Part shown: positions 20,082 through 40,561 of the stretch, one piece after another
Numbering within the stretch: the stretch's first letter is position 1
Layout of the letters: each line of letters starts with the position of its first letter
Source of the DNA: Jannaschia helgolandensis
GTDB lineage: Bacteria > Pseudomonadota > Alphaproteobacteria > Rhodobacterales > Rhodobacteraceae
Length of the DNA stretch: 64,000 bases
Assembly: GCF_900109285.1 (NCBI RefSeq)
Contig: NZ_FNZQ01000001.1
Location: forward strand, 897,001 to 961,000
Direction: 5' to 3'
Position numbers and translations under genes: made by a program
The notes under the pieces: generated by a model
The model's database searches: none
What the model saw: only the letters and a program-made list of their open reading frames with translations
Told to the model about the DNA's origin: nothing

Positions 20082-21668
20082 TCACAAATCCATCACCAAC
20101 CGACGCGGGTCCTCCAGCGCTTCCTTCACCCGCACGAGGAACGTCACCGCGCCCTTGCCGTCCACGATCCGGTGGTCGTAGCTGAGCGCGAGATACATCA
20201 TCGGGCGGATGACGATTTCGCCGCCGACGACCATGGGCCGGTCCTGGATCTTGTGCATGCCGAGGATGCCCGATTGCGGCGGGTTCAGAATGGGCGAGGA
20301 CATGAGCGAGCCGTAGACGCCGCCGTTCGAGATGGTGAAGGTGCCGCCCTGCATGTCGGCCATCGACAGCTTGCCGTCGCGCGCGGCGGCGCCCTTTTCG
20401 GCGATGGCCTTCTCGATCTCGGCAAACGACATCTGGTCGGCGTCGTGGATCACCGGGACGACGAGGCCCTGCGGCGTGCCTGCCGCGATGCCCATGTGGA
20501 CGAAGTGCTTGTAGACGACGTCGGTGCCGTCGATCTCGGCATTCACTTCGGGCACTTCGCGCAGGGCGTGGACGCAGGCCTTGGTGAAGAAGGACATGAA
20601 GCCCAGCTTCACGCCGTGCTTTTTCAGGAACAGGTCCTTGTATTCGCTTCGTAAGTCCATGACTGCACCCATGTCCACCTCGTTATAGGTGGTCAGCATG
20701 GCGGCGGTGTTCTGGCTGTCTTTCAGACGCTTGGCGATGGTCTGGCGCAGGCGGGTCATCTTCACCCGCTCCTCCCGCGCATCGTCCCCGGCGGGGGTGG
20801 GCGCGCGCGGGGCCTGTTTCGCGTCAGGCGCGGTCGATTTCGCGGCGGAGCCGGCCTTGAGCACGTCTTCCTTCATCACCCGACCGTCGCGGCCGGTGCC
20901 TTTGACCTGCGCGTCGGACAGGCCCATTTCAGCCATCATCTTCTTGGCCGAGGGTGCGTTCTCGACGTCGCCCCTGGCCGCGTCACCGGCCTTGGCTTCG
21001 GGCTTGCCCGCATCGGAACCGGGTTCAGGACTGGCAGGCTTTGGCGTGGCGATCGCCCCGGCCCCGGTGGTCAGAAGGGCCAGCTTGCTGCCGGCGGCGA
21101 CGGTCTCGCCCTCCTGTGCCAGGATTTCGGTCAGGGTGCCTGCGGCAGGGCTGGGCACCTCGACCGAAACCTTGTCGGTCTCCAGCTCGCAGAGCATTTC
21201 GTCGACGGAGACGGTCTCGCCCGGTTGCTTGAACCAGGTGGCGACGGTGGCCTCGGTCACGCTCTCGCCCAGGGCAGGCACCATGATGTCGATCGCCTCG
21301 CCGCCGGTATCGGCGGGGGCATTGCCGGGGTCGGTATTGACGTCGGGTTTGACCTCGACCGGTTCGGCCTTTTCGACTGGCTCGGCCTTGGGGGCGGACT
21401 TTTCGGCCTTGGGTGCCGGGGCTTCGCCTTCACCTTCCGATATGGTCGCCAGCAGGGCGTCGACGCCGACGGTCTCGCCCTCGGCGGCGACGATCTCGCC
21501 CAGCGTTCCGGCGGCGGGCGATGGCACTTCGACGGTGACCTTGTCGGTCTCCAGCTCGCAGAGCATTTCGTCGACGGCGACGGTATCGCCGGGCTGCTTG
21601 AACCAGGTGGCCACGGTGGCCTCGGTCACGGATTCGCCCAGGGTGGGGACTTTAACTTCGATGGTCAT
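20082..21668 (-). CDS. sucB: 2-oxoglutarate dehydrogenase E2, dihydrolipoyl succinyltransferase, two lipoyl domains
   Basis: A 528-residue E2. Two near-identical lipoyl domains are visible, with lipoylated Lys43 and Lys166 in ELETDKV, joined by Ala/Pro/Glu-rich linkers; then a peripheral E1/E3-binding domain (about 235-270, [30 protein letters not shown]) and the C-terminal catalytic domain with His/Asp in [15 protein letters not shown]. coli SucB has one lipoyl domain and about 405 residues. The start is 6 nt after the sucA stop. Confidence 0.96.
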
Positions 21669-21674
21669 GGCGGG

Positions 21675-24632
21675 TTACTCCGTGCTCAGCGCTTCGTCGA
21701 CGAGCGCTGCCTGTTGGGATTTATGCTGACTGGCGAGGCCCGTCGCGGGCGACGCGCTGGCGGCGCGACCGACATAACGGGGGCGGGTATGGCTGGCGCC
21801 GATACGGGTCAGCACCCATTCGATGTTCGGCTCGACGAATGTCCAGCCGCCCTGGTTCTTGGGCTCTTCCTGACACCAGACGATTTCGGCCTTCAGGAAG
21901 CGTTGCAGCTCGTTGACCATCGACAGGGCCGGGAACGGATAGAACTGCTCCAGCCGCAGGATATAGACATCGGTGATGCCACGCGCATCGCGCTCTTCCA
22001 GCAGGTCGAAGTAGACCTTGCCCGAACAGACGATGACGCGCTTGATCTTGTCGTCGGCGACCAGTTCCGTGTCCGAATTGCCGTGCTGCGCATCGTCCCA
22101 GAGGACGCGGTGGAAGGAGGAGCCGAGGGTGAATTCCTCCTTCTTCGAGACCGCCATCTTGTGACGCAACAGCGATTTCGGGGTCATCAGGATCAGCGGC
22201 TTGCGGAAGTCGCGGTGCAGCTGACGACGCAGGATGTGGAAGTAGTTGGCGGGCGTGGTGCAGTTTGCCACGATCCAGTTGTCGGAGCCGCATTGCTGCA
22301 GGAAGCGTTCCAGACGAGCCGACGAATGCTCCGGCCCCTGACCTTCGTAGCCGTGCGGCAGAAGGCAGACGAGGCCCGACATGCGGAGCCATTTGGACTC
22401 GCCGGAACTGATGAACTGATCGAACATGATCTGCGCACCGTTGGCGAAGTCGCCGAACTGCGCTTCCCACATGGTCAGGGCGTTGGGTTCGGCCAGCGAG
22501 TAGCCATACTCAAACCCCAGCACCGCGTATTCCGACAGGGCGGAATCGATGACTTCGAAGTGCGCCTGCCCTTCGCGGATGTGGTTGAGGGGGTAATAGC
22601 GTTCCTCGGTCTGCTGGTTGACGAAGGACGAATGACGCTGGCTGAAGGTGCCGCGCGTGCTGTCCTGCCCCGACAGGCGGACCCTGTAGCCCTCGGTCAG
22701 CAGCGACCCGAACGCCAGCGCTTCGGCGGTGGCCCAGTCGAAGTTCGCACCGGTCTTGAACATCTCGGCCTTGGCATCCAGCAGGCGACCGATGGTCCTG
22801 TGCAGCGGAAAGCCATCGGGTGCCGCCGACACGGCCGCACCGACCTCCGTGTAGGTCGCTTCGGGGATCGCGGTTTCACCGCGGATGTAATCGTCCTCTT
22901 TCCGGCGATCCAGATGCGACCAGCGCCCGTCCAGCCAGTCGGCCTTGTTGGGCTTGTAGTCGCGCCCGGCCTCGAATTCCTCGGCCAGCTTGTCCTGGAA
23001 GGCGGATTTCATGTCCTCGATTTCGCCCTCGGGGATCAGTCCGTCCTTGACCAGCCGCTCGGTATAGAGCGTCAGCGTCGTTTTCTGCTGTTTGATCTGC
23101 TTGTACATCAGGGGGTTGGTGAACATCGGCTCGTCCCCCTCGTTATGGCCGAAGCGGCGATAGCAGAAGATGTCGAGCACGACGTCCTTGCCGAACTTCT
23201 GCCGGAACTCGATGGCGACGCGGGCGGCGTGGACGACCGCCTCCGGGTCGTCGCCGTTGACGTGGAAGATCGGCGCCTCGACCACCAGCGCGTTGTCGGT
23301 GGGATAGGGACTGGAGCGCGAGAAGTGCGGCGCGGTCGTGAACCCGATCTGGTTGTTCACGACGATATGGATGGTGCCGCCGGTGCGGTGACCGCGCACG
23401 CCCGAGAGGGCGAAACATTCCGCCACCACGCCCTGACCGGCAAAGGCCGCATCGCCGTGCAGCAAAAGGCCCGCGACCTTCTTGCGGCTGGTGTCGCCGA
23501 TCTGATCCTGTTTGGCGCGGACCTTGCCCAGAACGACGGGGTTGACCGCTTCGAGGTGGGAGGGGTTCGCGGTCAGCGACAGATGCACGGTGTTACCGTC
23601 GAATTCGCGGTCCGACGACGCGCCGAGGTGATATTTCACGTCGCCCGATCCGTCGACGTCCTCGGGTTTGAAGCTGCCGCCCTGAAACTCGTTGAAGATC
23701 GCCTTGTAGGGCTTGTTCATCACGTTCGCGAGGACAGACAGGCGACCCCGGTGCGGCATTCCAATCACGATATCCGACAGGCCCAGTTGCCCACCGCGCT
23801 TGATGATCTGTTCCATCGCGGGGATCAGCGCCTCGCCCCCGTCCAGGCCGAACCGCTTGGTTCCCATGTATTTGACGTGCAGGTATTTCTCGAAGCCCTC
23901 GGCCTCGACCAGCTTGTTGAGGATGGCGCGCCTGCCGTTCTGGGTGAACTCGATCTCCTTGCCCAGACCCTCGATGCGTTCCTTCAGCCAGCCGGACTGT
24001 TCGGGGTCGGAAATGTGCATGTATTGCAGCGCGAAGGTGCCACAATACGTCCGCTTCAGGATCGCGATGATCTGGTTGAGGGTCGCGACCTCCAGCCCCA
24101 ACACGTTGTCGATGAAGATCGGGCGGTCCATGTCGGCATCGGTGAAGCCGTAGGACCGGGGGTCCAGTTCGGGGTGGGGCACGTCGTTGCGCATGCCCAG
24201 CGGGTCCAGGTCGGCGGCCAGATGGCCGCGAATGCGATAGGCCCGGATCAGCATGATGGCGCGGATGGAGTCCAGCACGGCGCGCTTGATCTGATCGTCG
24301 GAGGGGGCCGCGCCGGCCTGCGCCGCCTTGGCCTTGATCTTGTCGCCAGCCGCCTTGCCCTCTGGTTCCTCCGGCCATTCGCCGGTCAGCGCCGCGGTCA
24401 GATCGTCGCCCGGCACCGGCGGCCAGTCGGTGCGCGCCCAGCTTGGCCCGGCGGCCTCGGCCTGTGCGACCTCGCCCTCGTCGCCCATGGCGGCGAAGAA
24501 CTGCTTCCACGTCTCGTCCACGGCGGTCGGATCATTGGCGTAGCGGGCATACATCTGTTCGAGGTATTCCGCGTTATGCCCCTGCATGAAACTGGTGGAG
24601 CGGAAGACGTCGTTGTCGGATTGGTCGGTCAT
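21675..24632 (-). CDS. sucA: 2-oxoglutarate dehydrogenase E1
   Basis: A 985-residue thiamin-diphosphate-dependent decarboxylase of the TCA cycle. N-terminal SFMQGHNAEYLEQMY is the E2-binding segment; GMPHRGRLSVLANVM, HGDAAFAGQGVVAE, NNQIGFTT and YRRFGHNEGDEPMFT are classic SucA motifs. The ATG overlaps the stop of the preceding exported-protein gene by 4 nt. Order sucD, small gene, sucA, sucB on the reverse strand. Confidence 0.97.
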   Translation of the reverse strand: MTDQSDNDVFRSTSFMQGHNAEYLEQMYARYANDPTAVDETWKQFFAAMGDEGEVAQAEAAGPSWARTDWPPVPGDDLTAALTGEWPEEPEGKAAGDKIKAKAAQAGAAPSDDQIKRAVLDSIRAIMLIRAYRIRGHLAADLDPLGMRNDVPHPELDPRSYGFTDADMDRPIFIDNVLGLEVATLNQIIAILKRTYCGTFALQYMHISDPEQSGWLKERIEGLGKEIEFTQNGRRAILNKLVEAEGFEKYLHVKYMGTKRFGLDGGEALIPAMEQIIKRGGQLGLSDIVIGMPHRGRLSVLANVMNKPYKAIFNEFQGGSFKPEDVDGSGDVKYHLGASSDREFDGNTVHLSLTANPSHLEAVNPVVLGKVRAKQDQIGDTSRKKVAGLLLHGDAAFAGQGVVAECFALSGVRGHRTGGTIHIVVNNQIGFTTAPHFSRSSPYPTDNALVVEAPIFHVNGDDPEAVVHAARVAIEFRQKFGKDVVLDIFCYRRFGHNEGDEPMFTNPLMYKQIKQQKTTLTLYTERLVKDGLIPEGEIEDMKSAFQDKLAEEFEAGRDYKPNKADWLDGRWSHLDRRKEDDYIRGETAIPEATYTEVGAAVSAAPDGFPLHRTIGRLLDAKAEMFKTGANFDWATAEALAFGSLLTEGYRVRLSGQDSTRGTFSQRHSSFVNQQTEERYYPLNHIREGQAHFEVIDSALSEYAVLGFEYGYSLAEPNALTMWEAQFGDFANGAQIMFDQFISSGESKWLRMSGLVCLLPHGYEGQGPEHSSARLERFLQQCGSDNWIVANCTTPANYFHILRRQLHRDFRKPLILMTPKSLLRHKMAVSKKEEFTLGSSFHRVLWDDAQHGNSDTELVADDKIKRVIVCSGKVYFDLLEERDARGITDVYILRLEQFYPFPALSMVNELQRFLKAEIVWCQEEPKNQGGWTFVEPNIEWVLTRIGASHTRPRYVGRAASASPATGLASQHKSQQAALVDEALSTE

Positions 24633-25260: not shown

Positions 25261-26142
25261 TCACCCGATCGCGTCCTTCACCGCTTCGCCCAGCGTCGCC
25301 GGGCTGTCGGCGACGACGATGCCAGCCGATTTCATGGCCTCGATCTTCGATTCCGCGTCACCCTTGCCGCCCGCGACGATGGCGCCGGCGTGGCCCATGC
25401 GGCGACCCGGAGGGGCGGTGCGCCCGGCGATGAAACCGGCGGTCGGCTTCCAGCGGCCGGCCCTGCGTTCGTCGGCCAGAAACTGCGCGGCTTCCTCTTC
25501 CGCCGTACCGCCGATCTCGCCGATCATGATGATCGAGTGCGTTTCTGGATCAGCGAGGAACATTTCCAGCACATCGATGTGCTCGGTCCCCTTGATCGGG
25601 TCGCCACCGATGCCCACGGCGGTCGACTGGCCCAGCCCCATGTCGGTCGTCTGTTTGACTGCCTCATAGGTCAGTGTGCCGGAGCGGGATACGACCCCGA
25701 CCGACCCGCGTTTGTGGATGTGACCCGGCATGATGCCTATCTTGCATTCGCCGGGCGTGATGACACCGGGGCAGTTCGGACCGATCAGCCGGGTTTTCGA
25801 ACCGTCCAGCGCGCGTTTGACGCGCGTCATGTCGAGCACCGGGATGCCTTCGGTGATGCAGACGACCAGCGGAATTTCGGCGTCGATGGCCTCGAGGATG
25901 GAATCGGCGGCGAAGGGGGGCGGGACGTAGATCACGCTGGCCGTCGCGCCGGTGTGGGCGACCGCTTCGTGGGAGCTGTCGAAGACCGGCAGGCCCAGAC
26001 GCGTCTGCCCCCCTTTGCCGGGTGTCACGCCGCCGACCATTTTCGTGCCATAGGCAATTGCCTGTTCGGTGTGGAATGTCCCCTGCGAGCCGGTCAGGCC
26101 CTGGCAGATCACCTTGGTGTCTTTGTCGATGAGAATGGCCAT
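25261..26142 (-). CDS. sucD: Succinyl-CoA synthetase alpha subunit
   Basis: A 293-residue alpha subunit. CoA-binding [15 protein letters not shown] at the N-terminus, the IGPNCPGVI segment and the phosphorylated His in [15 protein letters not shown] are visible. It makes ATP/GTP from succinyl-CoA with SucC, encoded 1.1 kb upstream. Two small exported-protein genes separate sucC from sucD. Confidence 0.97.
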
Positions 26143-27276: not shown

Positions 27277-28470
27277 CTAACCCTTGACCGCCTTCACGAT
27301 CTTCTGGGCCCCGTCCTTCAGGTCGTCGGCGGCCACGACGTCCAGACCGGACTCGTTGATGATCGCCTTGCCTTCCTTGACGTTGGTGCCTTCCAGCCGG
27401 ACGACCAGCGGCACCTTGAGGCCGACTTCCTTGACGGCGGCGACCACGCCTTCGGCGATGACGTCGCAGCGCATGATGCCGCCGAAGATATTGACCAGAA
27501 TGCCCTTCACCTGCGGATCGGAGGTGATGATCTTGAACGCCTCGGTCACCTTTTCCTTGGTCGCGCCGCCGCCCACGTCGAGAAAGTTGGCGGGCTCCGC
27601 GCCATACAGCTTGATGATGTCCATCGTCGCCATGGCAAGGCCTGCACCATTGACCATGCAACCGATTTCACCGTCCAGCGCGATATAGTTCAGGTCGTAT
27701 TTGGAGGCGGCGAGTTCCTTGGGGTCCTCCTCGGTTTCATCGCGCAACTCGGCGATGTCCTTGTGACGGTACATCGCGTTGCCGTCGAAGCTGACCTTGG
27801 CGTCCAGCACCTTGAGCGTGCCGGTGTCGGTCACGATCAACGGGTTGATCTCCAGCATCTCCATGTCCTTCTCGGTGAAGGCTTTGTAGAGGTTGCCCAT
27901 CAACTGCACGCACTGCTTGACCTGCGCGCCCTCCAGCCCCAGCGAAAAGGCGATACGACGGCCGTGAAAGGGCTGATAGCCGGTGGCCGGATCGACGCTG
28001 AAGCTGACGATCTTGTCAGGCGTGTTGGCGGCGACTTCCTCGATGTCCATGCCACCCTCGGTGGAGCAGACGAAACCGATTCGGCTGGTTTGACGATCGA
28101 CCAGCAGCGCCAGGTACAGTTCGCGCGCGATGTCGGAGCCGTCTTCGATATAGATGCGGTTGACCTGCTTGCCCGCCGGGCCGGTCTGGTGCGTGATCAG
28201 GGTGCGGCCCAGCATTTTCTTGGCTTCCTCGGCGGCTTCCTGAACGGATTTGGTCAGGCGAACGCCGCCTTTCTCGCCGGCATCGGCCTCCTTGAACTTA
28301 CCCTTGCCGCGTCCACCGGCATGGATCTGCGCCTTCACAACCCAAAGCGGTCCATCGAGCTGACTTGCCGCGTCCTTGGCATCCGCCGCCTTGGTGACCG
28401 GCACACCTTCGCTGACGGGAGCCCCGTATTCGCGCAGCAGCGCCTTGGCCTGATATTCGTGGATATTCAT
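27277..28470 (-). CDS. sucC: Succinyl-CoA synthetase beta subunit
   Basis: A 397-residue ATP-grasp beta subunit. [19 protein letters not shown] at the start, [17 protein letters not shown], the [11 protein letters not shown] metal site and [14 protein letters not shown] are diagnostic. The ATG at 28470 matches the family start; the frame extends 16 codons upstream without homology. It is the first gene of the reverse-strand suc operon; two TGTGATCACA palindromes lie 114 and 135 nt upstream. Confidence 0.97.
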
Positions 28471-28583: not shown

Positions 28584-28614
28584 TGTGATCACATGTATGC
28601 GGGGTGTGATCACA
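28584..28614. promoter_or_regulatory. Paired TGTGATCACA palindromes before sucC
   Basis: Two perfect copies of TGTGATCACA at 28584-28593 and 28605-28614, exactly 21 bp apart (two helical turns), upstream of sucC. Closely matching sites occur before sdhC (35149-35177) and mdh (30632-30640), supporting a shared regulator. The pattern also resembles a CRP/FNR core, so the regulator's family is open. Confidence 0.75.
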
Positions 28615-28692: not shown

Positions 28693-29544
28693 TCAGCGCT
28701 GGAATCGTCCTCGCACAAGGCCAAGAGGACGCGACAGGATTTCCATTATCCCGCGCCGGATGAGCGGTCGGACCCGCGCGCCGTCGCCGCCGAGCGTGGG
28801 GTCGGACGCCACGAGGCGCGCCACTTGCTCGGCAGCCGTCCGACCCAACAGGTCGGAAAGCGTGTCGATCGGAGCTTTGCGCTTGCGAAAAGTCGCATGC
28901 AGGCGCGGCGAATGGATCAGGCGCGGTGCGGCGCAGTCAGACGACAAGGTGTTTAGTGCGCGCAGGCCCATGAGGTTATATTCCTCGGGTAGAGTGGCAA
29001 TGCGCAGGTTCCCGGTCCAAAGCACTTCGCGCAGCACACCCTGATCACGGGGCACGGCATCCGCGAGAATGCCATCGATTACGGCTTGCCAAGTGGCTTG
29101 GGTCGCGGGCGTTTGCCGCGCGCCGATCACGCCGGAGTTGTACTGCGGAAACGCGGTGGGCAAGTTCTGTCGCCACGTCGTGGTCGCATGTTCGGTGGCG
29201 CGGTAGGGGTCATGCGCCATGGCCACATCGAACCGGTCGAGCAGGTCGAAGATGTCCGAAGGATCGGCAACAGGCCAGATGTCGGCGTCAAGATAGATCG
29301 TCCGCGCAAACCTTGATCGGATCAGCGCGTCGAACTTGGGACGGAAAAATCCGTCCCCCAGGGAATGTACGGCATCGAATGGCCCTTCGAGCGAAGGTTG
29401 GTCCGTAAAGAGGTCAATGGGCGTGTCACCGACGATGCCGCGCAACATGGTCGCCGAACGCGTGGCAAGGGCCGTGTAATCGGGCCCCGTGGTCGCGAAG
29501 ACGTAACCGCGGCTGTCGGGATCGGAAGAGGGAGTGAAATCCAT
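28693..29544 (-). CDS. Glycosyltransferase-like protein (nucleotide-sugar transferase fold)
   Basis: A 283-residue soluble protein with a GT-A pattern: FRPKFDALIRSRFARTIYLDADIWPV (DxD motif in DAD), FPQYNSGVIGA and a C-terminal HSPRLH segment like GT8-type or related putative nucleotide-diphospho-sugar transferases. The acceptor and sugar are unknown; envelope polysaccharide modification is the usual role. It sits between mdh and sucC on the same strand, 45 nt after mdh, interrupting what is otherwise a TCA cluster. Confidence 0.75.
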   Translation of the reverse strand: MDFTPSSDPDSRGYVFATTGPDYTALATRSATMLRGIVGDTPIDLFTDQPSLEGPFDAVHSLGDGFFRPKFDALIRSRFARTIYLDADIWPVADPSDIFDLLDRFDVAMAHDPYRATEHATTTWRQNLPTAFPQYNSGVIGARQTPATQATWQAVIDGILADAVPRDQGVLREVLWTGNLRIATLPEEYNLMGLRALNTLSSDCAAPRLIHSPRLHATFRKRKAPIDTLSDLLGRTAAEQVARLVASDPTLGGDGARVRPLIRRGIMEILSRPLGLVRGRFQR

Positions 29545-29589: not shown

Positions 29590-30640
<1,051 letters not shown>

Positions 30641-35081: not shown

Positions 35082-35329
35082 GACTTACCCCGTTTTTGCA
35101 CGTTCAGGCTTCAAACCTGCGCATCCGGACCACGGTTCCGGCAATTCTTGTGATCACGGCAACCAAGCTGTGATCACGGATTGCAGGTATTCGGGATATT
35201 TCCGGCGTCTGCGACCGTGCGCCCCCGTGACTCCGCCGTTAAATCCGCTAGGATTACGGGCGAACGAGAACAATCCGACGACTTGGGCGACTCCATCGGT
35301 CCCGGTCGCAGCAGCCAAGGAGGTCCGCG
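35082..35329. other. Divergent control region between the DUF3140 gene and sdhC
   Basis: 248 bases without coding potential. It holds the TGTGATCAC pair (35149-35177) about 150-180 nt before sdhC. No further strong promoter or RNA motif was recognised. Confidence 0.5.
35149..35177. promoter_or_regulatory. Paired TGTGATCAC sites before sdhC
   Basis: TGTGATCAC at 35149-35157 and 35169-35177, 20 bp apart, each continuing CGG rather than CA. Same core and nearly the same spacing as before sucC, suggesting one regulator for sdh and suc. Confidence 0.72.
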
Positions 35330-35713
35330 ATGGCCGACGTGAACCGGGGCAATCGCCCGCTCAGTCCGCACCTGCAAATCTATCGCCCGCAGATGACGTC
35401 GATATCCTCGATCCTCATGCGGATATCGGGCAATGCGCTGATCGTGGCGGCCCTGATGATCACATGGTGGTTCGTGGCCGCCGCCGCAGGGCCGGATGCC
35501 TTTGCGACCGCCGACGCTTTCCTGACCTCGTGGTTCGGTAAACTGGTGTTCATCGGCTCTATCTGGGCGATCTGGTATCATCTGCTGGGCGGGATCCGCC
35601 ATCTGATCTGGGACACCGGCCGCGCGCTGGACGTTGCTACCGCTGAAATGATGGGATGGGGCATGGTCGTCGGGTCGATCCTGCTGACACTCATCACCAT
35701 CGCTATCCTGTAA
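35330..35713 (+). CDS. sdhC: Succinate dehydrogenase cytochrome b556 subunit
   Basis: A 127-residue membrane subunit with three helices. NRPLSPHLQIYRPQMTSISSILMRISGNAL is the SdhC N-terminal signature; the heme-ligand His is in WYHLLGGIRHLIWD. First gene of the sdh operon, complex II of the TCA cycle and respiratory chain. Preceded by AAGGAGG, seven bases before the ATG. Confidence 0.96.
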   Translation: MADVNRGNRPLSPHLQIYRPQMTSISSILMRISGNALIVAALMITWWFVAAAAGPDAFATADAFLTSWFGKLVFIGSIWAIWYHLLGGIRHLIWDTGRALDVATAEMMGWGMVVGSILLTLITIAIL

Positions 35714-35726
35714 GGGGCCTGCACAC

Positions 35727-36098
35727 ATGGCATATCTCACCGATCGCAAGCGCGTCGAAGGTCTTGGCGCCGCAGGCTCCGGCACGACGCATCACTGGCA
35801 GCAGACGATCCTTTCCATCGCGCTGGTCGTTCTGATCCCCTTGTTCATTTTCACGTTCGGCACGGTTCTTGGCGGCACCTACGAAGAGATTGTCGCTTAT
35901 TACTCCCGCCCCGTTCCGGCATTGATTGCGCTGTTGACGCTGGTTGTGGGTTGGGTTCACTTCGCCAAGGGTGTTCAGGTTCTGATCGAGGACTATGTGT
36001 CCGGTTCGACCCGCAAGTTCATGATCGTCGCGACCAACTGTGTCAGCTATGCTGCTGCGCTGGCGGGCGTTTACGCCATCGCCCGCCTGGCGCTGTAA
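35727..36098 (+). CDS. sdhD: Succinate dehydrogenase hydrophobic membrane anchor
   Basis: A 123-residue membrane subunit with three helices, starting MAYLTDRKRVEGLGAAGSGTTHHWQQTILSIALV and containing HFAKGVQVLIEDYV, the SdhD heme and quinone region. It follows sdhC by 13 nt and precedes sdhA by 12 nt. Confidence 0.93.
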   Translation: MAYLTDRKRVEGLGAAGSGTTHHWQQTILSIALVVLIPLFIFTFGTVLGGTYEEIVAYYSRPVPALIALLTLVVGWVHFAKGVQVLIEDYVSGSTRKFMIVATNCVSYAAALAGVYAIARLAL

Positions 36099-36110
36099 GG
36101 AGAACGACAG

Positions 36111-37922
36111 ATGGCTGCTTACGAATACGAGACGCATGAATATGATGTGGTCGTGGTGGGGGCCGGCGGTGCCGGCCTGCGCGCGACGCTCGGCATGGCC
36201 GAACAGGGCCTGCGCACCGCCTGCGTGACCAAGGTATTCCCGACCCGGTCGCACACCGTTGCCGCGCAGGGCGGCATCGCGGCCAGCCTTGGCAACATGG
36301 GCCCCGACAGTTGGCAATGGCACATGTATGACACCGTCAAGGGGTCGGACTGGCTTGGCGATACCGATGCGATGGAATACCTCGCCCGCGAAGCGCCCAA
36401 GGCGGTTTATGAGCTGGAACATTACGGCGTGCCGTTCTCCCGCACCGAAGAAGGCAAGATCTACCAGCGTCCCTTCGGCGGCCACACCACCGAATTCGGC
36501 GAAGGCCCCCCGGTGCAGCGCACCTGCGCCGCCGCCGACCGTACCGGCCACGCGATCCTGCACACGCTCTACGGTCAGAGCCTGAAGCAGAAGGCCGAGT
36601 TTTTCATCGAATATTTCGCGATCGACCTGATCATGTCGGAGGACGGCACCTGTCAGGGCGTGCTTTGCTGGAAGCTGGACGACGGCACCCTGCACCTGTT
36701 CAGCGCCAAGATGACGGTGCTGGCAACCGGCGGTTATGGCCGTGCCTATTTCTCGGCGACCTCGGCCCATACCTGCACCGGCGACGGCGGAGGTATGGTC
36801 GCGCGTGCGGGCCTGCCGTTGCAGGACATGGAGTTCGTGCAGTTCCACCCGACCGGCATTTACGGCGCCGGTTGCCTGATTACCGAGGGCGCGCGCGGCG
36901 AGGGGGGATACCTGACCAATTCCGAGGGCGAGCGGTTCATGGAACGCTATGCCCCGACCTACAAGGATCTGGCGTCGCGCGACGTGGTATCGCGCTGCAT
37001 GACGCTGGAAATCCGCGAGGGGCGCGGTGTCGGCAAGGACAGCGACCATATTCACCTGAACCTCAGCCACCTGCCGCCGGAAACGCTGGCCTTGCGGCTG
37101 CCGGGCATTTCGGAGAGCGCGCGCATCTTCGCCGGCGTCGATGTCACCAAGGAACCTGTGCCGGTTCTGCCCACGGTCCACTACAATATGGGTGGCATCC
37201 CGACGAATTACTGGGGCGAAGTGCTGGCCCCGTCTGACGGCAAGGACGATAACGTCGCGCCCGGTCTGATGGCCGTGGGCGAGGCGGGCTGTGCCTCCGT
37301 TCACGGTGCGAACCGTCTGGGCTCGAACTCCCTGATTGACCTCGTGGTCTTCGGCCGCGCCGCCGCGATCCGGGCTGGCGAAATCGTCGACCCATCGACC
37401 CGCGTTCCCGAGCCGAACATGCGCTCGGTCGAGATGGCACTGGCCCGCTTCGACGGTCTGCGCCACGCGCGCGGTCAGGTCGCCACCGCCGAGCTGCGTC
37501 TGGAAATGCAGAAGACGATGCAGGACGACGCCGCCGTCTTCCGCACCTCCGAAACCCTGGCCCAGGGCAAGGACAAGATGGAGGATATCGCAGGCAAACT
37601 GTCGGATGTCGCCGTCACGGACAACACGCTGATCTGGAACTCCGACCTGATGGAGACATTGGAACTGGCCAACCTGATGCCCAATGCCGTGGCCACCGTG
37701 GTCGCCGCCGAAGCCCGCAAGGAAAGCCGGGGTGCCCACGCGCACGAGGATTTCCCCGATCGCGACGATGAAAATTGGCGGAAGCACTCGCTGACCTGGT
37801 TCAGGGGCGACGCGATGAAGGCCGATCTGGGATATCGCGGTGTCCACGTAAACCCACTCACCAGTCACAACGACGGCGGCATCGACCTCAAGAAGATCGC
37901 GCCGAAAGCCCGTGTTTATTGA
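36111..37922 (+). CDS. sdhA: Succinate dehydrogenase flavoprotein
   Basis: A 603-residue flavoprotein: FAD motif GAGGAG (17-22), covalent FAD His48 in [12 protein letters not shown], active-site [26 protein letters not shown] and [10 protein letters not shown]. Oxidises succinate to fumarate. Its end overlaps the next small lipoprotein gene by 11 nt, the first of five genes between sdhA and sdhB. Confidence 0.97.
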
Positions 37923-39781: not shown

Positions 39782-40561
39782 ATGGTCCAATTCACCCTTC
39801 CCAAGAACTCGAAGATCACCGTCGGCAAGACCTGGCCCAAGCCCGAAGGCGCGGACAACCTGCGCAAGTTCCAGATCTATCGCTGGAACCCGGAGGATGG
39901 GAAAAACCCGCGGCTCGACACCTATTGGGTGGACCTTGATACCTGCGGACCGATGGTTCTGGACGCGCTGATCAAGATCAAGAACGAGGTCGATCCGACG
40001 CTGACCTTCCGCCGCTCCTGCCGCGAAGGCATCTGCGGGTCCTGCGCGATGAATATCGACGGTGTGAACACGCTGGCCTGCACCTGGGGCATCGACGAGG
40101 TGAAGGGCGACGTGAAAATCTATCCGCTGCCGCACCTGCCGGTCATCAAGGACCTTATTCCCGACCTGACGCATTTCTATGCCCAGCACGCCAGCGTCAT
40201 GCCGTGGCTGGAAACCAAGTCGAATGCACCTGCCAAGGAATGGCGCCAATCCATCGAAGATCGTGAAAAGCTGGACGGTCTGTATGAATGCATCATGTGC
40301 GCATCCTGTTCGACCGCCTGTCCGTCTTATTGGTGGAACGGCGATCGCTATCTGGGACCAGCAGCGCTTCTGCATGCCTATCGCTGGATCATCGACAGTC
40401 GCGACGAGGCCACCGGGGAGCGGCTGGACGATCTGGAAGATCCGTTCAAACTGTATCGCTGCCATACGATCATGAACTGCGCCAAGACCTGCCCCAAGGG
40501 TCTGAACCCGGCGCGCGCGATCCAGAATATCAAGAAGATGATGGTCGAGCGACAGCTCTGA
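39782..40561 (+). CDS. sdhB: Succinate dehydrogenase iron-sulfur protein
   Basis: A 259-residue iron-sulfur subunit with the [2Fe-2S] site [15 protein letters not shown]...LAC, [4Fe-4S] site [12 protein letters not shown] and [3Fe-4S] site [14 protein letters not shown]. Electrons pass from SdhA to quinone. Separated from sdhA by five inserted genes. Confidence 0.97.

What the first reader, a model, noticed from the sequence alone, without database searches (positions are those of the whole stretch)
28584..28614. Paired TGTGATCACA operators shared by sucC, sdhC and mdh promoters
Two perfect TGTGATCACA copies 21 bp apart precede sucC; two TGTGATCAC copies 20 bp apart precede sdhC (35149-35177); one TGTGATCAA precedes mdh (30632-30640). 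Three TCA operons in one window share a core and spacing not seen elsewhere here. CceR and AkgR are reported TCA regulators in alphaproteobacteria; whether they bind this motif is not known to me.
Basis: partly seen in the sequence, partly recalled or inferred. Interest (0 to 1): 0.72.

Follow-up and report, generated by a model that had tools for sequence, protein, structure and literature searches.

The report
Paired AkgR-type operators before sucC and sdhC
Two copies of a ten-letter DNA switch, set two helix turns apart, sit before the sucC and sdhC genes of the citric acid cycle; most sampled relatives of the same family carry such pairs, and they fit a regulator already reported in Rhodobacter (AkgR), so the switch itself is probably not new.

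Summary
The sucC and sdhC pairs are real. TGTGATCACA stands at 28584-28593 and 28605-28614 (period 21) before sucC; TGTGATCAC at 35149 and 35169 (period 20) before sdhC. In the whole 3.56-Mb genome this pair occurs only there; about 0.004 core pairs are expected by chance. Paired GTGATCAC occurs in 363 of 395 family genomes, the window's own included; the reversed pattern in none. Of 156 pairs inspected, 90 have sucC and 59 sdhC as next reference gene within 900 nt; the period is 21 (142) or 20 (13). The mdh half-site is not conserved. The likely regulator is one GntR/FCD protein coded about 190 kb outside the window. Orthologues occur in 31 of 31 pair-positive and 5 of 32 pair-negative genomes. 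Of 59 distinct orthologue loci, 43 carry GTGATCAC just upstream of the gene, 36 with TTGAC starting exactly 18 nt before it; this genome's own gene has lost it. This matches RSP_0981 of R. sphaeroides, predicted to control sucCD, sdh and odh (PMC4344238), which I recall to be AkgR; GTGATCAC is quoted as an AkgR motif (PMC6365646). CceR's motif is absent.

The parts
28584..28593 (.). sucC operator, copy nearer sucC: TGTGATCACA
   Evidence: conserved pair
28605..28614 (.). sucC operator, copy further from sucC: TGTGATCACA, period 21
27277..28470 (-). sucC (succinyl-CoA synthetase beta subunit), first gene of a co-directional run with sucD (25261-26142), sucA (21675-24632) and sucB (20082-21668)
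   Evidence: sucC family scan (ATP-grasp_2, Ligase_CoA); the other names given by eye from the translations; operon inferred
35149..35158 (.). sdhC operator, copy further from sdhC: TGTGATCACG
35169..35178 (.). sdhC operator, copy nearer sdhC: TGTGATCACG, period 20
35330..35713 (+). sdhC, first gene of the sdh run (sdhD 35727-36098, sdhA 36111-37922, sdhB 39782-40561)
   Evidence: sdhC family scan (Sdh_cyt); the other names given by eye; operon inferred
30632..30640 (.). TGTGATCAA before mdh: single imperfect copy, judged not part of the system

Best explanation
The two pairs are tandem operators of an AkgR-type GntR/FCD transcription factor, coded in this genome at C5:706793-707440 (minus strand), outside the window. 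Each TGTGATCACA palindrome should bind one dimer. The 20-21 bp period puts two dimers on the same face of the helix, two turns apart, upstream of the sucC and sdhC promoters, from where they should activate the sucCD-sucAB and sdhCDAB operons together. In most relatives examined the regulator's own gene has one copy of the same operator between a TTGAC box and the start codon, a position that should repress it; in this genome that copy is missing. Shown here: sequence, uniqueness, conservation, spacing, co-occurrence and the self-operator. Inferred: binding, dimer stoichiometry, activation and autorepression. From the literature and recall: that AkgR is an activator of TCA genes.
For: Pair only at sucC and sdhC in the genome. 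Paired core in 363 of 395 family genomes (own included), reversed pattern in none. 149 of 156 pairs have sucC (90) or sdhC (59) as the next of nine reference genes within 900 nt. FCD orthologue at 66% identity or more in 31 of 31 pair-positive genomes (30 with at least two pairs, plus the sister species) and 5 of the 32 pair-negative ones. Of those five, G035, G258 and G367 turn out to have a degenerate pair (1-2 mismatches, period 21) before sucC; G178 and G139 could not be read. Orthologue also in 36 of 40 genomes reached through 41 of the 119 loci. Among the best-scoring 30 loci of each (59 distinct), 43 have GTGATCAC just upstream of the gene; TTGAC starts exactly 18 nt before it in 36 of 43 and 20 nt in 3, against 0 of 43 in a control stretch. 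For another FCD regulator used as control, 0 of 30. Outside the family a triple array with periods 20 and 21 lies right before an FCD regulator gene (L218). GntR and FCD domains. Literature.
Against: In this genome and its sister species (L275) the regulator gene has no such site upstream; 16 of 59 orthologue loci lack it. Orthology to RSP_0981 was not tested by sequence, and that RSP_0981 is AkgR is recalled. Co-occurrence is confounded by phylogeny, and another FCD protein (L051) also correlates, less well (27 of 31 against 5 of 32); the other 16 FCD matches were not tested. The L218 regulator matches L050 almost as well as L059 (E 2.4e-23 against 6.8e-24), so that link is weak. Allgaiera indica has a pair but no orthologue at E 1e-50, and so have three MAGs. 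No start site was measured; the sucC -35/-10 scan did not beat shuffles.
Confidence: 0.88

Rival explanations
1. The pairs are operators of a different GntR/FCD regulator, such as the PdhR-like protein next to a ptsP-like gene (L051, C5:799622), and the co-occurring AkgR-type gene is a bystander.
For: L051 orthologues (54% identity or more) also track the pair: 27 of 31 against 5 of 32.
Against: Four pair-positive genomes lack it (G017, G020, G029, G037). Of the five pair-negative genomes that have it (G004, G139, G298, G344, G362), the four with a readable sucC upstream show no pair at the usual place; G139 has no sucC match. None of 30 L051 orthologue loci has the core in the 200 nt upstream.
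Confidence: 0.06
2. CceR (LacI family) binds here.
For: CceR (RSP_1663) is predicted to regulate sdh and mdh in R. sphaeroides (PMC4344238, passage; that RSP_1663 is CceR is recalled).
Against: Its predicted motif is absent from the three intergenic stretches of the window. In relatives GTT-N6-8-AAC is found before 2 of 89 sucC (12.1 expected), 2 of 30 sdhC (3.5) and 7 of 64 mdh (5.3). As mdh shows no signal either, this loose pattern may be a weak test.
Confidence: 0.02
3. A CRP/FNR-type protein binds TGTGA-TCACA.
For: The half-sites look like those of a CRP site (recalled).
Against: CRP sites have six bases between TGTGA and TCACA (recalled); here there are none. R. [quoted passage not shown] The same motif occurs before the FCD regulator genes themselves.
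Confidence: 0.02
4. The repeats are not regulatory: chance or a palindromic repeat element.
For: The single 8-mer is common, 36 of 49 inside predicted genes, and single sites in the window barely exceed shuffles.
Against: Conserved pair with fixed period at the same two operons in many genomes, reversed pattern in none.
Confidence: 0.01

Closest known systems
AkgR of Rhodobacter sphaeroides (recalled to be RSP_0981, GntR family)
   Same: GTGATCAC said to be among its binding sites (passage in PMC6365646). RSP_0981 is predicted to control sucCD, sdh and odh (passage in PMC4344238). Its locus tag is close to those of sdh; likewise the orthologue lies within about 20 kb of the pairs in G009 and G037, 2 of the 3 genomes for which both positions were listed.
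   Different: The defining paper (mBio 2015, e02461-14) is not held, so I could not tell whether it describes paired operators. In this genome the gene lies about 190 kb outside the window and lacks the self-operator; in G039 it is on another contig than the pairs.
PS417_07240, GntR-like regulator of the deoxyribonate cluster in Pseudomonas simiae
   Same: GTGATCAC palindrome upstream of its own cluster, proposed as its site; 32% identical to AkgR according to that paper (PMC6365646, passage).
   Different: One palindrome reported, at -47 to -40; a local catabolic cluster, not the TCA cycle.
McbR (PDB 4p9f), nearest solved structure by sequence
   Same: GntR-type regulator (phmmer E 8.5e-23).
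   Different: A different regulon (recalled); no structural comparison made.

Membership tests
AkgR regulon | Operator core GTGATCAC | tested here: met
   motif attribution in PMC6365646 (passage)
AkgR regulon | Targets: succinyl-CoA synthetase, succinate dehydrogenase and 2-oxoglutarate dehydrogenase operons | tested here: met
   Pairs before sucC (with sucD, sucA, sucB named by eye downstream on the same strand) and sdhC; predicted RSP_0981 targets in PMC4344238
AkgR regulon | Genome encodes a GntR-family regulator tied to the motif | tested here: met
   C5:706793-707440; GntR and FCD domains; co-occurrence; self-operator in 43 of 59 distinct orthologue loci, though not in this genome
AkgR regulon | That regulator is the orthologue of RSP_0981 | tested here: inconclusive
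   RSP_0981 sequence not available; only closeness to the pairs in G009 and G037, not in G039, and by locus tag
AkgR regulon | Direct binding and activation of the TCA genes | not testable with these tools
   needs binding and expression experiments
CceR regulon | Motif [AGT]GTT-N6-8-AAC[ACT] in the promoters | tested here: not met
   0 hits in the sucC, mdh and sdhC intergenic stretches

The most novel reading that the evidence does not exclude
One GntR/FCD factor uses the same palindrome in two opposite ways. Two copies two helix turns apart, placed upstream, activate just two operons, which cover the 2-oxoglutarate to fumarate stretch of the TCA cycle; a single copy between the -35 box and the start codon of its own (possibly leaderless) gene represses the factor. 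Pairing, not core sequence, would mark the true targets, since the single core is common in the genome, and this rule would hold across Rhodobacteraceae. A/T runs with a period of about 10 bp between operator and promoter may add bending or RNA polymerase contact.
Probability: 0.45. Interest if true: 0.45.

Novelty: new member of a known kind. Interest (0 to 1): 0.3.

Why it matters
It ties an unexplained repeat to a regulator already reported and gives a simple rule, two GTGATCAC cores 20-21 bp apart, that finds the sucC and sdhC control regions in most sampled genomes of a bacterial family. It also gives a testable model of how one factor can activate its targets and repress itself with the same site.

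Tried and rejected
mdh as a third target: 9 of 64 relatives within one mismatch, about 4 expected; rejected. cimA as a further target (perfect palindrome 65 nt upstream of a gene that looks like citramalate synthase): 0 of 26 relatives with a readable start have the exact core (29 loci, 3 starts not found); rejected as conserved. Other sites of this genome with TGTGATCA or with one mismatch: mostly inside predicted genes or without a convincing target by eye. The one-mismatch list was cut off (50 of 58 places shown), so some were not examined. gltA, acnA, icd and fumC promoters were not looked up one by one. CceR motif: absent from the window's three stretches.

Promoter elements: a -35/-10 scan placed a candidate -35 at +64 to +67 (0 is the T of the TGATCA of the gene-proximal copy) in 34 of 60 sdhC sequences, with a mean score above shuffles (9.32 against 8.58). 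For sucC (91 sequences) the mean score equalled shuffles (9.07 and 9.07), so its promoter is unresolved. The A/T period test (0 of 2000 column permutations reached the observed power, for sucC and for sdhC) ignores runs of A/T and the relatedness of the sequences, so it is suggestive only.

Class-wide search: 63 of 289 genomes match the looser pattern; five of these are of the window's family, its own genome included. The 30 loci fetched from the others gave no match to the window's suc, sdh or mdh proteins. Of the 7 pairs not assigned to a reference gene, four (L093, L115, L119, L172) lie near the edge of the locus, L144 is a Streptosporangiaceae MAG, and L168 and L176 were not followed up. 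Literature: eight searches, seen as listings; only asked for tandem operators. I read passages only of PMC6365646, PMC4344238, PMC11323563, PMC4419725, PMC7471390 and PMC5343134.

Full report
Observation. The three motif places are as written. The pair at sucC has period 21 and that at sdhC period 20. A search of the whole genome (3,562,860 bases, 14 contigs; the window is C5:897001-961000) for TGTGATCAC-N10-13-TGTGATCAC finds only these two places. The 8-mer GTGATCAC occurs at 49 places, 36 of them inside predicted genes (with a simple codon-usage gene caller of my own, which can miss genes). About 0.004 pairs at six spacings would be expected. Single sites in the window barely exceed shuffles (5 against 1.90; 5 of 100 shuffles reach 5). 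So the pair is significant and the single core is not.

Conservation. GTGATCAC-N11-16-GTGATCAC is present in 363 of 395 genomes of the same family, the window's own included, while the reversed pattern is in none. That search does not say where in each genome the pair lies. In these 119 and in 30 loci I found 156 pairs. For 90 the next start among nine reference genes of the window, within 900 nt, is sucC, and for 59 it is sdhC. The period is 21 in 142, 20 in 13 and 18 in 1. The pair ends a median of 110 nt before sucC and 138 nt before sdhC, counted where the match began within the first three residues. An exact core lies in the 200 nt before all 89 readable sucC and all 30 readable sdhC of these loci, as expected since the loci were found by it. 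Before the other genes of the cluster, sites within one mismatch were: mdh 9 of 64 (about 4 expected), sucD 21 of 61 (4), sdhA 8 of 53 (3), sdhD 3 of 9 (0.4), sdhB 3 of 18 (1), sucA 3 of 39 (2) and the citE-like gene 4 of 44 (3) (expectations from shuffles of single letters). The sucD and sdhD excess was not followed up; those stretches may be operon-internal coding DNA.

The regulator. The genome holds 18 FCD matches. Outside the family, in G520, three copies of the core with periods 20 and 21 lie right before an FCD regulator gene (L218), which pointed to this class; its best tblastn match among the 18 is the L059 locus, with L050 nearly equal. I compared two candidates over 63 genomes: 31 with the pair and all 32 without it. 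The FCD protein of L059, C5:706793-707440, has an orthologue of 66-92% identity in 31 of 31 and of 69-76% in 5 of 32 (G035, G139, G178, G258, G367), plus one partial match in G100 and homologues of 50-51% in G248 and G298 (Fisher p 5e-13, which ignores phylogeny). The L051 protein scored 27 of 31 against 5 of 32. The other 16 were not tested. Looking before sucC in the pair-negative genomes (26 readable), G035 and G258 have a pair with one mismatch and G367 one with two, all at period 21; G100 has one copy with one mismatch; G362 has a two-mismatch pair at period 19, 433 nt away; G016 a three-mismatch pair at period 20; the other 20 have five mismatches or more. So the exceptions that could be read fit the FCD protein, except that G100 has only a single copy. 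Through loci, 36 of 40 further genomes have the orthologue; Allgaiera indica and three MAGs do not.

Self-operator. I took the best-scoring 30 loci of each, one of them a duplicate. In 43 of the 59 distinct loci an exact GTGATCAC lies just upstream of the regulator gene. TTGAC begins exactly 18 nt before it in 36 of 43 and 20 nt in 3; of the 4 without it, three (L297, L434, L435) read TTGAT at the same place. A control stretch further upstream has TTGAC in 0 of 43. The first ATG lies 8-10 nt after the core in 25 of 43; in 12 an ATG directly abuts the core. The operator therefore sits over the region where the -10 element should be, and transcription may start at or near the start codon; both are inferences. 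As a control, 0 of 30 L051 orthologue loci have the core in the 200 nt upstream. In this genome and in its sister species the site is absent. The neighbourhood is conserved: a SprT-like gene in 55 of 60 loci and an FYDLN-type gene in 49 of 60 (both names are recalled labels, no family scan was run on them).

Literature. [quoted passage not shown] PMC4344238 (passages) predicts that RSP_0981, a GntR-family regulator, controls sucCD (RSP_0967-6), sdh (RSP_0974-6) and odh (RSP_0965-62), and that RSP_1663 binds [A/G/T]GTT-N6-8-AAC[A/C/T] and controls mdh and sdh among others. That RSP_0981 is AkgR and RSP_1663 is CceR is recalled; the mBio paper itself is not held. Both positions were listed for three genomes: in G009 and G037 the FCD orthologue lies on the same contig as the pairs, 11-18 kb away, and in G039 on another contig. 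This is in line with the closeness of RSP_0981 to RSP_0974-6.

Mechanism. Two palindromes two helix turns apart upstream of the promoter fit two dimers on one face, acting as an activator. One palindrome between -35 and the start codon of the regulator gene fits self-repression. Downstream of the pair, A/T-rich runs recur about every 10 bp in the aligned sequences, with the caveats given under Tried and rejected. No start sites were measured.

Verdict. The finding is a good catch of a real operator pair. It belongs, with high likelihood, to the known AkgR system. mdh and CceR should be dropped from the claim. The pairing rule and the self-operator are the parts that might be new; I found them in none of the passages or listings I saw (searches), but the key paper was out of reach.

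Noticed in passing
28693-29544 (-): A gene weakly matching Nucleotid_trans (PF03407, E 2.7e-5) sits between mdh and sucC; my codon-usage gene caller did not report it.
   Followed up: partly
L045:3014-3023 (genome C13:129513): Perfect TGTGATCACA 65 nt before a gene that looks like citramalate synthase; the exact core is absent before it in 26 of 26 readable relatives.
   Followed up: yes
L218:973-1020: Triple GTGATCAC-type array (periods 20 and 21) between a gene that looks like a TonB receptor and an FCD regulator followed by a dehydrogenase-like gene, in an alphaproteobacterium outside the family.
   Followed up: partly
genome C6:91254-91418 (L065): A fragmentary FCD match with an internal TGA; a GTGATCAC lies about 160 bases away.
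   Followed up: no
L128 (Allgaiera indica): Has the pair but no orthologue of the regulator at E 1e-50: a lost or diverged regulator or a replacement.
   Followed up: no
relatives, 200 nt before sucD: Site within one mismatch of GTGATCAC in 21 of 61 loci, where about 4 are expected; may be a conserved coding stretch.
   Followed up: no
L118 (MAG labelled Robiginitomaculum): Carries the pair before a sucC-like start but no orthologue of the regulator was found in that genome; the contig may be misbinned.
   Followed up: no
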